From: Phormidium tenue FACHB-1052
GTDB lineage: Bacteria; Cyanobacteriota; Cyanobacteriia; Phormidesmidales; Phormidesmidaceae
Reading direction: 5' to 3'
Length of the DNA: 64,000 nt
Assembly: GCF_014696675.1 (NCBI RefSeq)
Contig: NZ_JACJQN010000005.1
Coordinates: forward strand, 186,001 to 250,000
Part shown: piece by piece, positions 6,058 through 10,809 of the stretch
How the letters are laid out: the number at the start of each line of letters is the position of its first letter
Numbering within the stretch: position 1 is the first letter of the stretch
The notes under the pieces: model-generated
Told to the model about the DNA's origin: nothing
What the model saw: the letters and a program-made list of their open reading frames with translations, nothing else
Databases searched by the model: none
Made by a program: the position numbers and the translations under genes

Positions 6058-6726
6058 TTAGACCGCAATCAGAGCAATGTTAGAAAATACAAATTCCTGT
6101 CTATCGATGTCGTCGCCAACACTGGTTTCGATGGCGCGGCGAGAAAGAATATAGTAGCCGCCAACTTCGGTGTATTCGTCTTCAAAATCGCTGAGGCCGC
6201 CCTTTTGATCGCCGGTTTTGGGATCGTGGTAGACCGAGTCATAGCGATGCGACAGGTAGCCTGAGCCAGTGTCATGGCTGCTATAGGTGTGAATGGTCAC
6301 CACGACACCGTGAATATGGCGATGCACCATCGACACTTCGTTGTCTTTGAGCTGGTAGCGATCGCCCTCGGCCTTACCGCCCATCAAAATCTCCACTGAG
6401 CCGTCGGCGAGGGTATCGCCATAGCGAAAGGTGTTGTTGCTGTGGCTGTCTTCAAACTCGCGCCGCACCCGGTGAATCGAGACCTCAAACAGCTGACCAT
6501 GCACCATTTTTTGGGCCGCCTCATCGGCAATGCCGCTCACTTCAAGCTTGAGGTCGGCGCTAACCTTGACCTGGCCACTATGGGTCTGGCCGTTGTGGGT
6601 AAACGTCACATCGGCGGTGTAACCAGGGAAAGCTGCATCCCAGGTGTAGCGATTTTCATAGGCAGCGCGAAATAAGTCCCGTGCTGCAAGCTGAGTTCCA
6701 ACCATTAAATAAATCTCCCGGTTCAT
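6058..6726 (-). CDS. DUF3386 family protein
   Basis: A 222-residue protein of the cyanobacterial/plant DUF3386 family. The conserved opening AARDLFRAAYENRYTWD starts near residue 14 and is followed by beta-rich repeats (FPGYTADVTFTHNGQTHSG; MVHRHIHGVVVTIHTYSSHD). There is no signal peptide or membrane span, so it is probably cytoplasmic. Function is unknown. An internal ATG at residue 8 (MVGTQLAARD) is an alternative start. It is monocistronic: a strong hairpin terminator follows, and over 400 bp of gene-free DNA lies upstream. Confidence 0.82.
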   Translation of the reverse strand: MNREIYLMVGTQLAARDLFRAAYENRYTWDAAFPGYTADVTFTHNGQTHSGQVKVSADLKLEVSGIADEAAQKMVHGQLFEVSIHRVRREFEDSHSNNTFRYGDTLADGSVEILMGGKAEGDRYQLKDNEVSMVHRHIHGVVVTIHTYSSHDTGSGYLSHRYDSVYHDPKTGDQKGGLSDFEDEYTEVGGYYILSRRAIETSVGDDIDRQEFVFSNIALIAV

Positions 6727-7148
6727 GTTTGGTGCACAAACAGCGCCCTGCCGCTGTGCTGGAGCCTCTCTAGCATAGCGATTCTAGACTCCCCTGGGCT
6801 TGGCCTGGGCTGAAAATGGTGGGCAAGGTCAGCCGCGAATTGCAAAGAAATGTATTGTGATTTACAGTAATAACGGAGTCACCCCTTAGAATAAAAAGCC
6901 GATTAATTCGCTCAGTTTTTTTGGCCACAATTTTGCTGGGCAGATCGGTTCCTAGAAGCTGAATTCAGTTATAGTTTTCCACAGGTTACTTGTCAGCCTT
7001 AATTTTAAGGCATCTGCCAAAAAGCCTGCACAGTCAGGGCTTTTAGGATTATTCGTTGTTGTCAGATCGCAAAAGCTTTAGGTTATCCACAGTTTTTTAG
7101 CTGTCTGTGGATAACTTGCTTTTGGCAACAAGTAGACGATCGCACCCC
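6727..7148. other. AT-rich gene-free stretch with DnaA box cluster
   Basis: This 422-bp stretch has no credible gene. It holds TTTTCCACA at 6975-6983, TTATCCACA at 7083-7091 and its complement TGTGGATAA at 7106-7114, all matches to the DnaA box consensus TTWTNCACA; TTGGCCACA at 6921-6929 is a weaker fourth. The last two strong boxes lie in an inverted repeat with 11-bp arms (7082-7092 and 7105-7115). The flank at 6838-6925 is visibly AT-rich. This resembles a replication origin or a DnaA-controlled region, but dnaN and dnaA are not adjacent. An origin is only a hypothesis. Confidence 0.5.
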
Positions 7149-8603
7149 TCAACCAGCGTACTGATCAATCGCCTCAAATAGCTGGCTTACCTCAGCCGCC
7201 GTAGTAAACGGGTTGAGCAACACCGCCTTCAACCATCGCTGCCCCCGAAAGCACGGCACCGATAAAAAGATCTGGTGCTGCTTCAGCAGGTAGTTCTGCA
7301 AGCTGGCGTTCCAGGCATCCCGCTGGGCTGGCGGCAGCGCGGCGGGGCAGCCGCGAAAGCAGATTAGATTCATCTCAGGCTCGCTGGCCAGTTCTAGGTA
7401 GGGACGCTGGCGCACCTGAGTGACAAAGTGCTCGCTCAGGGCATAACTGGCCTCGATCAGTTCGGCGCAGCCCACTTGGCCTAGATGCTGGAGCGTGAGC
7501 CACAGTTTGAGCACATCGGCATGGCGAGTTCCCTGCACCGTCAGTTCCCCTAGATTTACCCAGTCGGGCTCAGTATTCATGTAGGGTGCTGACACTCGAA
7601 AGTGACTGTGCAGCAACCCCAGATCGCGAAACAGCACCGAGGCACAGGTCTTCGTGACATACAGCCATTTTTGGGGGTTGAACGTCACCGAATCGGCCTG
7701 TTCAATGCCCGTCAGCCGATGCCGGTGCCGGGGCGAAAAGGCGATCGCGCCACCATAGGCCGCATCCACGTGAAACCAGAGCTTATAGGTTTGGGCGATG
7801 CGGGCGATCTCAGGCAAGGGGTCAATGTTGCCGGTGACGGTGGTGCCCGCCGTACCCACCACCGCAAAGGGCCGCTGCCCTCGGGCGATCGCACTCTGAA
7901 TTTTCTCGTCTAGAGCAGTCGCATCCATCTGGGCATTGGCGTTTGCGGGTACCAGCACTACCCCCTCCAGCCCCAGTCCCAGCACCATTGCCGCCTTTTG
8001 AATCGAGGTGTGGGCCATCTCCGAAGCCAAGATCACCGGTGGTGGCCCTCCGGCCAATCCCTGCCGTAGACAGTCTAGTTTGACGTTGCGGGCAACGGTG
8101 AGCGCCTGCAAATTAGCCAGGCTGCCACCGCTGGCCAGCAGCCCCCCCGCCCGCTCCCCCAGCCCAAACATCTGGGCCAATTCGGCCAGCAGCAGCGGCT
8201 CTAACCGCGACAGCGCAGGCGACATCTCCACACTCAGCATGTTGTTGTTCAAGGCTGCCGCCGCCCAGTCGCCCACAATAGAAGCGGTGCTGGGTAAGGG
8301 ATCCATGTGGCCCATGTAACCGGGGTGGGCCGGGTTCATCGACTGGGCCATGAGGTCGCCCAGGGATGCCAACAGGGGGGCGATCGCCGTGGGCTGAACT
8401 GGAATACCGCTAAACTCAATCTCCTTGATTGAGGGCAGAGGGTCGTGGCTGCCCGCCCCTGTGGAGTAGTCAAGAATTTGCTCGACCACCGTCTGCAAAA
8501 TCGCTGCAATGGCCGCTCGGTTGTGGCCCTGGGGGTCGATAAACGCGGTAGCAGGCAAAACCGATGGAGCCAACGTACACCTCTTGAGGGAACTATGGCT
8601 CAA
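7149..8603 (-). CDS. group II PLP-dependent decarboxylase
   Basis: A 484-residue fold-type I pyridoxal-phosphate enzyme of the group II amino acid decarboxylase family (glutamate, 2,4-diaminobutyrate, tyrosine and aromatic amino acid decarboxylases). Visible are H198 (substrate/cofactor stacking, in MAHTS), FHVDAAYGG with D280 for the pyridine nitrogen, and the Schiff-base lysine K312 in NPQKW. The N-terminal HPGYMGHMDPLPS loop (93-105) is typical of the family. The substrate cannot be chosen from motifs alone; L-2,4-diaminobutyrate, aspartate or glutamate are possible. It is separated from the anti-sigma gene upstream by 45 bp on the same strand but is probably independent of it. Confidence 0.85.
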   Translation of the reverse strand: MSHSSLKRCTLAPSVLPATAFIDPQGHNRAAIAAILQTVVEQILDYSTGAGSHDPLPSIKEIEFSGIPVQPTAIAPLLASLGDLMAQSMNPAHPGYMGHMDPLPSTASIVGDWAAAALNNNMLSVEMSPALSRLEPLLLAELAQMFGLGERAGGLLASGGSLANLQALTVARNVKLDCLRQGLAGGPPPVILASEMAHTSIQKAAMVLGLGLEGVVLVPANANAQMDATALDEKIQSAIARGQRPFAVVGTAGTTVTGNIDPLPEIARIAQTYKLWFHVDAAYGGAIAFSPRHRHRLTGIEQADSVTFNPQKWLYVTKTCASVLFRDLGLLHSHFRVSAPYMNTEPDWVNLGELTVQGTRHADVLKLWLTLQHLGQVGCAELIEASYALSEHFVTQVRQRPYLELASEPEMNLICFRGCPAALPPAQRDAWNASLQNYLLKQHQIFLSVPCFRGQRWLKAVLLNPFTTAAEVSQLFEAIDQYAG

Positions 8604-8648: not shown

Positions 8649-9413
8649 CTACAAGGGCTGAATTAGCAGGGGAGGCGACAGGTGGGCCTGGGGCGCGGCG
8701 GCGCTTTCCTTGGTAATGGCCACGGCCCGCACAAGACCGCGATCGCGGCGGTACACGGGCGGCAGATCAATGGGTTGCGACACCTGGCCCTGCTCATTCA
8801 CCGTGAACACGGTGGTGAGAATAGCGTTTTTTTGGTCCACAGTGGCCGCAGCACTGGGGTCTACTACCGTCCACAGTACGTAAACAGTACCAGGCTCCAG
8901 GGGCGGCAGGTTCGCCACCGTGAGGGAGCCCGCCAGGGTATTGGGGTTAATCACCACCTGAGCCTGTCCCGACGACGCACCACCCTCAGGAGAACCCAGG
9001 GCAATGGTCAAGGTTTCGTTCGGCTGGCTGGCCCGCTCAAGCTGTAGCGATCGCCAAAGCATCAGGTTGCTCAAACTGAGGCCAGCAATCAGCACTGCTG
9101 CTGTTGCCCCCCAGATTCGTCCCCAACGCTGAGGCCGCCCCAGAGCCACAACCGAGGCACTCACCGCTTCAGCCCTATCAACCGACTGGGCAGCGGTCTG
9201 TAGTAGAGCCATCCTCAAATGGGCAGGTGGGCTGACAGAATCAGCATCGTAGGCTGTTTCCAGCGCCTGCTGGAGCTGGTCAATATCCTGCTGTAGATCG
9301 GGGTTGGCCGCCAGCAGGTCTGACAGGGTAGCTGACTCTTCGGGGCTAAGGTTGTAGAGAACATAGCCCGCCAGCAGCAGCTGCAATTGTTCTGATGAGA
9401 TCGACCCAGTCAT
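8649..9413 (-). CDS. anti-sigma factor, RskA-like, membrane-anchored
   Basis: A 254-residue protein. The N-terminal 55 residues (LQLLLAGYVLYNLSPEES) look like a zinc-less anti-sigma binding domain, followed by one transmembrane helix (about 100-120; WGATAAVLIAGLSLSNLMLW) and an extracytoplasmic beta-rich RskA-type domain (about 135-254; NTLAGSLTVANLPPLEPG). It lies 4 bp downstream of the ECF sigma gene, so translation is likely coupled and the product should hold that sigma factor at the membrane until released. The releasing signal and protease are unknown. Confidence 0.85.
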   Translation of the reverse strand: MTGSISSEQLQLLLAGYVLYNLSPEESATLSDLLAANPDLQQDIDQLQQALETAYDADSVSPPAHLRMALLQTAAQSVDRAEAVSASVVALGRPQRWGRIWGATAAVLIAGLSLSNLMLWRSLQLERASQPNETLTIALGSPEGGASSGQAQVVINPNTLAGSLTVANLPPLEPGTVYVLWTVVDPSAAATVDQKNAILTTVFTVNEQGQVSQPIDLPPVYRRDRGLVRAVAITKESAAAPQAHLSPPLLIQPL

Positions 9414-9417
9414 AGTG

Positions 9418-10005
9418 CTAGTTACCCCAACGCTCTTGGAGAATTTGTCGTAGCCTCAGCAGGCCTCGACGAGAATGAGTTTTGACGGTGCCCAGGGGGG
9501 TATCGAGCCGTTCGGCAATGGTGGTTTGGGATAGCCCTTCGTAGTAGGCCAGGCGCAAAATCTTTTGCTGACTCTCAGAAAGCTGATCTAGAGCCGTCTG
9601 GATGTCGTGGGCACGCTCAGCTTGGGCTAGAGCCTGCTCTGGGGTGCGGGTCGGGGGTATTACCTGGGCAGACTGAAGGCGTTCCACCGCAGCCCGAGCC
9701 ACTTGGCGCGATCGCAGGCGGTCAATGGCGCGCGATCGCGTCAGTATGGCCAGGAATGTGCGCAACGAGCCTCGTTGGGGGTCATAGGCCGCCAACGGTA
9801 GCTTGACAAAAATGTCTTGGGTCAGGTCTTCGGCGTCCTGGGTGTGGCTCAACACTTTAAGAGCAATGCCGTAGACCAGTCCACCGTGGCGATCGTACAG
9901 AGGGCCAAGGGCGTTAGTTTGCCCCGCCTTTAAAGCCAACCAAAGGTCTGCATCCGTGGGTGCTTCAGTGCCTGTCGAGGTCAGTCGATCAAAATCCATA
10001 TACAT
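9418..10005 (-). CDS. ECF-type RNA polymerase sigma factor
   Basis: A sigma-70 family group 4 factor of about 195 residues with region 2 (DAEDLTQDIFVKLPLAAYDP) and a region 4 helix-turn-helix (LSESQQKILRLAYYEGLSQT). Sigma-3 is absent, as expected for ECF factors. The frame is open to 10122, but the extra 39 residues look non-coding, so the ATG at 10005 (or 9999) is more likely. It sits between a CHRD-domain exported protein gene upstream and its putative anti-sigma gene 4 bp downstream, the arrangement I associate with cyanobacterial SigG-like systems. ECF factors usually activate their own operon, but I could not confirm a promoter. Confidence 0.87.
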   Translation of the reverse strand: MYMDFDRLTSTGTEAPTDADLWLALKAGQTNALGPLYDRHGGLVYGIALKVLSHTQDAEDLTQDIFVKLPLAAYDPQRGSLRTFLAILTRSRAIDRLRSRQVARAAVERLQSAQVIPPTRTPEQALAQAERAHDIQTALDQLSESQQKILRLAYYEGLSQTTIAERLDTPLGTVKTHSRRGLLRLRQILQERWGN

Positions 10006-10152
10006 TGGATGCTCAGACACCAGACCCGTCACGTGACTGGAGGATCGTACCGCAATCATTGCTTTATACAATGCCATGGTTCGGGTGTGCTGCCATCCCG
10101 TTGGGTGGTGACTGAGCGCCACCCAACGGGATATAGAGTATGTAGCGATCGC

Positions 10153-10809
10153 CTAAGCAGGCATTAAAATGCCTCGCAGTTCGCCAGCCCGGTAGCGACT
10201 GGTGTGGAAGTCGATGTACAGCATGCCATTTTGCAGCGCCTGAAGCTGTTCAGGCGTGAGGGTATAGTCGCCCATGGCGCTTCCCCCGCGACCGTTGGCA
10301 TTCATAGTTACCTCTAGGGCGTACTGAAATGGCCCATTTTCGCTAGCGCTACCGCGGTGGACGTGGAACGCCGAGGTGATGTTGGGGTTAGGCGGATCGA
10401 GCGGGTCGGTGGCATAGTCGCGCGGGGCACTGCTCAGCTCACGAAAACTGCCGCGCACCACTAGGCGATTGCCGGACAGGGCCGCCCCAACCACTCCACG
10501 GGCATCGGTCATGACCCCTTTGGGTACAATATTCTGACCGCTGAGCGTGGCTATATAGGTAACGATGGGCTCATTTAAGCCTTGAGCCAGCAGAGGAGCC
10601 GTCGCCGCCGCTAGGTTTGCATCAATCTGTTCTCCTAGGGCAAAGGTGTCGCTGGGGGCACCAGACCAGGGAGTTGCTGCCAGCGCGGGGGTTACCAGCG
10701 GTGCCTGAGCCATCACCCGGCCCAGCATCGGAGAGTACAGTAGCGTTACAAACAGACAGGTAGCTAAGGCAATTAAGCTATTGCGCAGATGCTTTCGTTC
10801 TCTCAACAT
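10153..10809 (-). CDS. exported CHRD-domain protein
   Basis: A 218-residue protein with an N-terminal signal peptide (basic start, hydrophobic residues about 12-30, likely cleavage after VMA near residue 34). The CHRD beta-domain covers about 83-216 (VTYIATLSGQNIVPKGVMTD, then AFHVHRGSASENG and YIDFHTSRYRAGELRGIL). CHRD domains were first seen in chordin, where they contribute to ligand binding; in bacteria they are exported and uncharacterised. It is the first gene of the CHRD/sigma/anti-sigma set, so it could be the main target or sensor partner of the ECF system. That role is inferred from position only. Confidence 0.85.
   Translation of the reverse strand: MLRERKHLRNSLIALATCLFVTLLYSPMLGRVMAQAPLVTPALAATPWSGAPSDTFALGEQIDANLAAATAPLLAQGLNEPIVTYIATLSGQNIVPKGVMTDARGVVGAALSGNRLVVRGSFRELSSAPRDYATDPLDPPNPNITSAFHVHRGSASENGPFQYALEVTMNANGRGGSAMGDYTLTPEQLQALQNGMLYIDFHTSRYRAGELRGILMPA

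What the first reader, a model, noticed from the sequence alone, without database searches (positions are those of the whole stretch)
6900..7120. Cluster of DnaA boxes in an AT-rich intergenic region
Three strong matches to TTWTNCACA occur within 140 bp, two as an inverted repeat, next to an AT-rich run. In many bacteria such clusters mark oriC or DnaA-regulated or titrating sites. Against oriC: neither dnaA nor dnaN is near, and the large ribosomal block 6-17 kb to the right would be transcribed against a fork leaving this point.
Basis: partly seen in the sequence, partly recalled or inferred. Interest (0 to 1): 0.55.

Follow-up and report, generated by a model that had tools for sequence, protein, structure and literature searches.

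The report
Conserved three-box DnaA control site
A 150-base stretch with three predicted binding sites for the replication starter protein DnaA is kept once per genome throughout one cyanobacterial genus, although its neighbouring genes have changed several times; it does not look like the normal replication origin, so it is probably a control site for DNA replication.

Summary
The three boxes are real: TTTTCCACA 6975-6983(+), TTATCCACA 7083-7091(+), TTATCCACA 7106-7114(-). The arrangement (box1-N97..101-box2-N13..15-inverted box3, about 150 bp) occurs in all 26 held genomes of the window's genus (Nodosilinea-type cyanobacteria): 25 of 26 by pattern, one copy each, the 26th by a profile built without it. 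Among 37 other family genomes nothing scores comparably. Sequence just outside the element is not conserved across the genus, and it sits in at least five gene neighbourhoods, so it is not tied to one flanking gene. The two natural box variants keep TTWTNCACA but break the palindrome, favouring DnaA over an RNA hairpin. It is very probably not the main origin: an array of near-consensus boxes lies upstream of dnaN in 24 of 24 dnaN loci examined. Best explanation: a non-origin DnaA-control site working like E. coli DARS/datA but with different geometry; membership is not supported and DnaA binding is untested. It lies 0.24-0.26 of the contig from dnaN in three genomes, but 95 kb away in a fourth, so a fixed position is only a lead.

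The parts
6971..7118 (+). Whole conserved module (box 1 - spacer - box 2 - loop - inverted box 3 - CTT)
   Evidence: Column conservation falls to background a few bases upstream of box 1 and about 3 bases after box 3 (alignment); profile match G000:C32:192971-193118, E 2.9e-25 (G000 is one of the 25 rows of the profile, so this score is by construction)
6975..6983 (+). DnaA box 1, TTTTCCACA
   Evidence: invariant in the 25 aligned genomes and the same in G024
6984..7082 (+). Spacer, 99 bp here, 97-101 bp in the other genomes; weakly conserved inside
7019..7028 (+). Recurring inner motif AAAAAGCCTG (loosely AARSCYTG) about 35-45 bp after box 1
   Evidence: Read by eye from the column counts and the spacer list; spacers from other gene contexts score above their own shuffles (7 rows, z 1.3 to 2.3; combined z 5.4, rows related by descent)
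7083..7091 (+). DnaA box 2, TTATCCACA
   Evidence: TTTTCCACA in G018 only
7092..7105 (+). 14-bp loop between boxes 2 and 3 (13-15 bp elsewhere)
7106..7114 (-). DnaA box 3, TTATCCACA, inverted relative to box 2
   Evidence: TTATTCACA in G024 only

Best explanation
The module is a chromosomal, non-origin DnaA-binding control site. Inferred mechanism: DnaA binds the inverted boxes 2 and 3 as a face-to-face pair. The roughly 98-bp spacer, perhaps bent by a nucleoid protein such as HU, brings the DnaA on box 1 to that pair. This geometry-dependent complex changes DnaA activity (nucleotide exchange or hydrolysis, as at E. coli DARS and datA) or holds DnaA back, and so helps to set when the origin at dnaN fires. 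Shown here: the three boxes, their nearly fixed spacing, one copy per genome across the genus, independence from any one flanking gene, and a separate box array at dnaN. Inferred: that DnaA binds, and every step after binding.
For: Relaxed pattern in 25 of 26 genus genomes, 20 of 20 of the high-quality ones, one copy each, reversed-pattern controls zero. The 26th, G024, found at E 1.3e-12 by a profile built from the other 25. Spacings 97-101 and 13-15 bp while spacer and flanks diverge. The only two box changes among the 26 genomes fall on degenerate positions of TTWTNCACA: G018 box 2, G024 box 3; only two events, but no genome is left out of the census. dnaA present in 26 of 26. At least five gene neighbourhoods, flanking genes tandem or divergent. 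Exactly three TTWTCCACA within 500 bp in 19 of 19 cyanobacterial records (some records end sooner). Box array upstream of dnaN in 24 of 24 loci. Three boxes among about 85 are few for simple titration, and the fixed geometry argues for a geometry-dependent function (inference). E. coli DARS cores also carry an opposing box pair (measured; PMC8682772, passages read).
Against: No binding or functional data. Box geometry differs from DARS and datA. The distance from dnaN is 0.261, 0.262 and 0.235 in G008, G011 and G014, but 95 kb in G018; G014 also has a second dnaN-like gene 216 kb from the module, and in G011 the skew turns negative again 0.25-0.5 Mb beyond the module, which suggests unequal arms. 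Some cyanobacteria replicate independently of DnaA (PMC7198777, passages read), in which case DnaA here might serve only transcription. Restricted to one genus. In one search the filters for over 40 genomes lose some weak matches, so a diverged relative in other genera is not excluded. In G018 an open frame overlaps the first 32 bp of the module.
Confidence: 0.58

Rival explanations
1. Simple DnaA sink: the boxes only hold DnaA molecules and nothing depends on their geometry.
For: The boxes fit the consensus better than most of those at the dnaN array, which mostly carry one mismatch; titration of DnaA by the chromosome is described for E. coli (PMC12371093, abstract and outline seen).
Against: Only three sites among about 85 TTWTCCACA in the genome; nearly fixed spacing and weak spacer conservation are not needed for a sink.
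Confidence: 0.12
2. DnaA-controlled switch for neighbouring genes (DUF3386, decarboxylase).
For: 18 of 26 genomes have it beside DUF3386, and these group together in a DnaA tree; DnaA regulates genes in other bacteria (PMC7198777, passages read).
Against: Eight genomes have it beside other genes. In seven of these eight DUF3386 was found elsewhere, with no TTWTCCACA within about 1.5 kb (three loci, in G001, G013 and G024, hold one TTTTGCACA; the two G024 loci are cut by contig ends); G021 had no DUF3386 hit. A conserved promoter-like block of DUF3386 lies about 190 bp or more from the module (my reading).
Confidence: 0.1
3. Second or backup replication origin.
For: DnaA boxes in an intergenic region, moderately AT-rich in the window; some cyanobacteria fire from multiple origins (PMC7198777, passages read).
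Against: A box array lies at dnaN. Sampled GC skew changes sign near dnaN in G011 and roughly in G008, not at the module; it is noisy in G008 and uninformative in G014. No consistently AT-rich flank, though no search for an unwinding element was run.
Confidence: 0.1
4. RNA hairpin or transcription terminator, or the site of another dimeric DNA-binding protein.
For: 11-bp perfect palindrome with a 12-nt gap.
Against: Terminator scan of 6700-7200 found none. Rfam gave one match over the palindrome far below its cut-off, E 0.74. The box changes in G018 and G024 break the pairing but keep the DnaA consensus. Box 1, about 98 bp away, is just as invariant. In G002 the module lies between divergent genes.
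Confidence: 0.1

Closest known systems
E. coli DARS1/DARS2 core
   Same: Three DnaA boxes in a short non-coding element outside oriC, two of them facing each other; E. coli keeps the relative distance to oriC constant (PMC4585315 and PMC8682772, passages read).
   Different: Measured in MG1655, one mismatch allowed: +, N5, -, N3, - at both cores (the loci were picked by recalled gene neighbours). Here: +, N98, +, N14, -. No IHF/Fis sites tested; no sequence relation shown.
E. coli datA
   Same: In the glyV-X-Y/queG region I measured one + box, then 162 bp further a convergent pair, a layout that recalls the module; the minimal datA needs boxes 2, 3 and 7 and an IHF site (PMC10950094, passages read). 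I did not match the measured boxes to the numbered ones.
   Different: The convergent pair is 3 bp apart there and 14 bp here; the long spacing differs; an IHF site was not tested.
Cyanobacterial dnaN-linked oriC
   Same: Same box type; the profile finds weak partial resemblance upstream of dnaN in G014, G018, G021 and G002 (E 2.6e-5 to 0.04).
   Different: More boxes, mostly with a mismatch, in another arrangement, linked to dnaN.
DnaA-bound regulatory sites of E. coli
   Same: DnaA box pairs outside oriC.
   Different: E. coli DnaA prefers box pairs 2-3 bp apart (PMC11317965, abstract and passages read); here the pair is 14 bp apart and inverted.

Membership tests
oriC | Linked to dnaN or dnaA, or the main box array of the genome | tested here: not met
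   dnaN on contig C34, dnaA on C33, module on C32; array upstream of dnaN in 24 of 24 loci examined
oriC | At the GC-skew switch point | tested here: inconclusive
   Switch near dnaN in G011, roughly in G008, none at the module; noisy, G014 uninformative
oriC | AT-rich unwinding region beside the boxes | tested here: inconclusive
   G+C of spacer 0.34-0.57 and of upstream 200 bp 0.41-0.61 in 25 genomes; no search for an unwinding element was run
DARS | Three DnaA boxes, two in opposing orientation | tested here: met
   definition from PMC8682772 passages
DARS | Core spacing N5 and N3 | tested here: not met
   N98 and N14 here against N5 and N3 measured in MG1655
DARS | Promotes ADP release from DnaA | not testable with these tools
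   Biochemical
DARS | Fixed relative distance from oriC | tested here: inconclusive
   0.261, 0.262, 0.235 in G008, G011, G014; 95 kb in G018
datA | IHF site in the element | not tested
   No IHF-site scan was run
datA | Promotes ATP hydrolysis on DnaA | not testable with these tools
   Biochemical
DnaA-regulated promoter | Stays with the regulated gene | tested here: not met
   At least five neighbourhoods among 26 genomes
Intrinsic terminator | GC-rich hairpin followed by a T run | tested here: not met
   0 found in 6700-7200

The most novel reading that the evidence does not exclude
A new class of DnaA-activity locus in cyanobacteria, functionally like DARS or datA but with its own geometry (box, about 98 bp, inverted pair): a discrete 150-bp unit that has changed gene neighbourhood several times while staying single-copy, and that in most species may lie about a quarter of the chromosome from the origin.
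Probability: 0.35. Interest if true: 0.85.

Novelty: new variant of a known kind. Interest (0 to 1): 0.62.

Why it matters
What DnaA does in cyanobacteria is open: some species need it and others replicate without it (PMC7198777, passages read). In the listings and in the passages I read, I saw no DARS- or datA-like site reported in cyanobacteria; (Nodosilinea with replication origin) gave no paper, and the 10 of 12 papers listed (Leptolyngbya with DnaA) show none in title or abstract start. These are listings of an open-access library, some capped, and most papers were not opened. A single-copy, sharply bounded site with natural variants in 26 genomes makes the question testable by one deletion and one in vitro assay.

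Tried and rejected
Relocated-oriC idea: exact boxes upstream of dnaN seemed missing in many genomes, and a box array between a sigma factor and priA seemed a replacement origin. Allowing one mismatch showed boxes upstream of dnaN in 24 of 24 loci examined, so I dropped it.

oriC at the module: disfavoured for the same reason; GC skew was too noisy to decide alone.

The strict pattern gave 24 of 25 same-genus genomes; the miss, G018, has a box-2 variant and appears with the relaxed pattern. G024 was not in the samples, failed the relaxed pattern and was found by profile.

Mid-replichore rule: three genomes lie near a quarter of the contig from dnaN, G018 does not, and the skew of G011 suggests unequal arms; kept as a lead only. 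For G014 I used the dnaN with boxes upstream; the second dnaN-like gene lies 216 kb from the module. G025 was not usable, because dnaN and module lie on different contigs.

dnaN loci: one search scored one dnaN per genome (24 genomes); second copies in G002, G008, G014 and G018 were left out (none had an exact box within 1 kb upstream); no dnaN was found in G003 and G013.

Matches elsewhere: 50 of 69 records are not titled as cyanobacteria; 46 of the 50 lie in arrays of four or more boxes. I did not study them further. Two viral-contig matches (L353 and L354) and the one cyanobacterial match outside the genus, G224, were not examined.

Mechanism of relocation: not resolved; no systematic search for mobile elements was made.

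Full report
WHAT IS THERE. Three DnaA boxes lie at 6975-6983(+), 7083-7091(+) and 7106-7114(-), the last two as an 11-bp perfect inverted repeat. They sit between DUF3386 (6058-6726 -) and a PLP-dependent decarboxylase (7149-8603 -). The box number in the window is unremarkable (6 against 3.1 expected). A triple within 140 bp is not expected at random (0.00018 per genome), but if the palindrome is one event the expectation for a box beside it is about 0.14.

CONSERVATION. A BLAST of the intergenic stretch over 57 genomes showed short conserved islands in same-genus genomes, one of them the palindrome. In 17 of 17 loci fetched there in which DUF3386 could be located, all three boxes are present with spacers of 97-101 and 13-15 bp. 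A strict pattern hit 24 of 388 genomes of the class, all among the 25 same-genus genomes in that sample. A relaxed pattern hit 26 of 388: 25 of 25 same-genus genomes plus G224 of another genus. Over all 26 held genus genomes the relaxed pattern finds 25, one copy each, including 20 of 20 high-quality ones. A profile from those 25 finds the 26th, G024, at E 1.3e-12, 49.7 bits. Of the family's 37 other genomes, 14 have weak matches, best E 0.002 and about 20 bits, against 50-99 bits in the genus (filters there lose some weak matches).

NAMES. Of 69 matching records in the species-level collection, 19 have cyanobacterial titles and 50 do not (one of the 50 is titled only 'bacterium'). Within 500 bp the 19 hold exactly three TTWTCCACA each; 46 of the 50 others lie in larger arrays. 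Seventeen of the 19 match contigs of held genus genomes by length; the other two, L098 and L160, have the module beside DUF3386 and the decarboxylase.

BOUNDARIES. Anchored column counts over 18 representatives fall to background a few bases upstream of box 1 and about 3 bases after box 3. Inside the spacer some columns are conserved, notably a T about 20 bp after box 1 and a motif near AARSCYTG at 35-45 bp (read by eye). A weight matrix from DUF3386-linked spacers scores seven spacers from other contexts above their shuffles, z 1.3 to 2.3 each, combined 5.4 (rows share ancestry, so this is indicative). The 150-bp unit therefore looks inherited as a whole.

CONTEXT. Eighteen genomes have it beside DUF3386, 17 of them with the decarboxylase found on the other side (not in G015). 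The others: G001 and G013 between a DUF1400 alpha/beta hydrolase and a NUDIX gene; G002 and G024 between DUF4230 and a short-chain dehydrogenase; G005 beside the same dehydrogenase (left side cut by the contig end); G014 between DUF4230 and a mannosyltransferase; G021 between uvrB and a TrkA-type channel; G018 beside a GGDEF gene, with an open frame on the other side that overlaps the first 32 bp (the dehydrogenase name is my reading of the sequence). In seven of these eight DUF3386 was found elsewhere, without TTWTCCACA and without the decarboxylase within about 1.5 kb; three of these loci hold one TTTTGCACA, the two G024 loci are short, and G021 gave no DUF3386 hit. A DnaA tree puts the 18 DUF3386-linked genomes on one side of a branch, support 100/99 (midpoint root, G024 and G018 weakly placed).

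DnaA OR SOMETHING ELSE. Two box variants exist among 26 genomes: G018 box 2 is TTTTCCACA and G024 box 3 is TTATTCACA. Both keep TTWTNCACA and both break the perfect palindrome. The patterns allowed only W changes, but as all 26 genomes are accounted for, no other variant was lost. Two events are few; still, an RNA stem or a reader of the palindrome would not predict them. No terminator was found, and Rfam gave one match far below its cut-off. dnaA is present in 26 of 26 genomes, and a GGKDHTT motif was read in all 26 (that this is the DNA-binding signature is recalled).

ORIGIN. dnaN lies on another contig. Exact boxes upstream of dnaN are few or absent in many genomes. With one mismatch allowed, 24 of 24 dnaN loci, one per genome, have 3 to 12 boxes in up to 700 bp, against a mean of 0.24 and a 99th percentile of 2 in 1680 sampled windows; positions near -505, -411, -382 and -329 recur. 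No dnaN was found in G003 and G013. Sampled skew changes sign near dnaN in G011 and roughly in G008; finer sampling was noisy and G014 uninformative.

POSITION. The shortest distance from dnaN is 0.261 (G008), 0.262 (G011) and 0.235 (G014) of the contig taken as a circle; G008 and G011 share gene context and G014 does not.

HOW IT MAY WORK. Three boxes among about 85 are few for titration, while the nearly fixed geometry suggests an assembled complex. In E. coli, boxes I and II of DARS oppose each other and support head-to-head DnaA contacts that release ADP (PMC8682772, passages read). datA needs boxes 2, 3 and 7 and an IHF site (PMC10950094, passages read). I measured MG1655 (which loci are DARS1, DARS2 and datA is partly recalled; one mismatch allowed): both DARS cores are +,N5,-,N3,- and the datA region has a + box, then 162 bp on a +,N3,- pair. 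The module is +,N98,+,N14,-. So it may work like them, but it is not a member by geometry.

LITERATURE. Searches: (listings seen). Passages were read from PMC4585315, PMC7198777, PMC6478999, PMC8682772, PMC5010248, PMC10950094 and PMC11317965, and the abstract and outline of PMC12371093. Nothing that I saw describes such a site in cyanobacteria; PMC4674748 (Cyanothece origins) was seen only in the listing, and most subscription papers are not in the library.

Noticed in passing
G000 contig C34:194052-194123 (L065, L292): Tandem plus inverted TTTTCCACA array between a sigma-70 factor and priA; paired boxes at the same place in 15 genomes (G000 included), all among the 18 DUF3386-linked ones; 21-40 kb from dnaN in the seven measured. 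Some matches had no locus and were not checked.
   Followed up: partly
window 6765-6786: Block near TTCTCTAGCATA.CGATTCT upstream of DUF3386, strongly conserved in the 17 aligned loci; on the minus strand it resembles a promoter -10 element (reading by eye).
   Followed up: no
window 8649-10809: RskA-like anti-sigma gene, sigma-70-family factor and CHRD-domain gene in a row.
   Followed up: no
G014, G018, G002, G008: A second dnaN-like gene in each.
   Followed up: no
L088 (G021): Here the module follows uvrB; the E. coli DARS1 core measured lies just upstream of uvrB. Probably coincidence.
   Followed up: no
Upstream of dnaN in G014, G018, G021, G002: The module profile gives weak partial matches there (E 2.6e-5 to 0.04), which could mean descent from an origin fragment or just two boxes at a similar spacing.
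   Followed up: no
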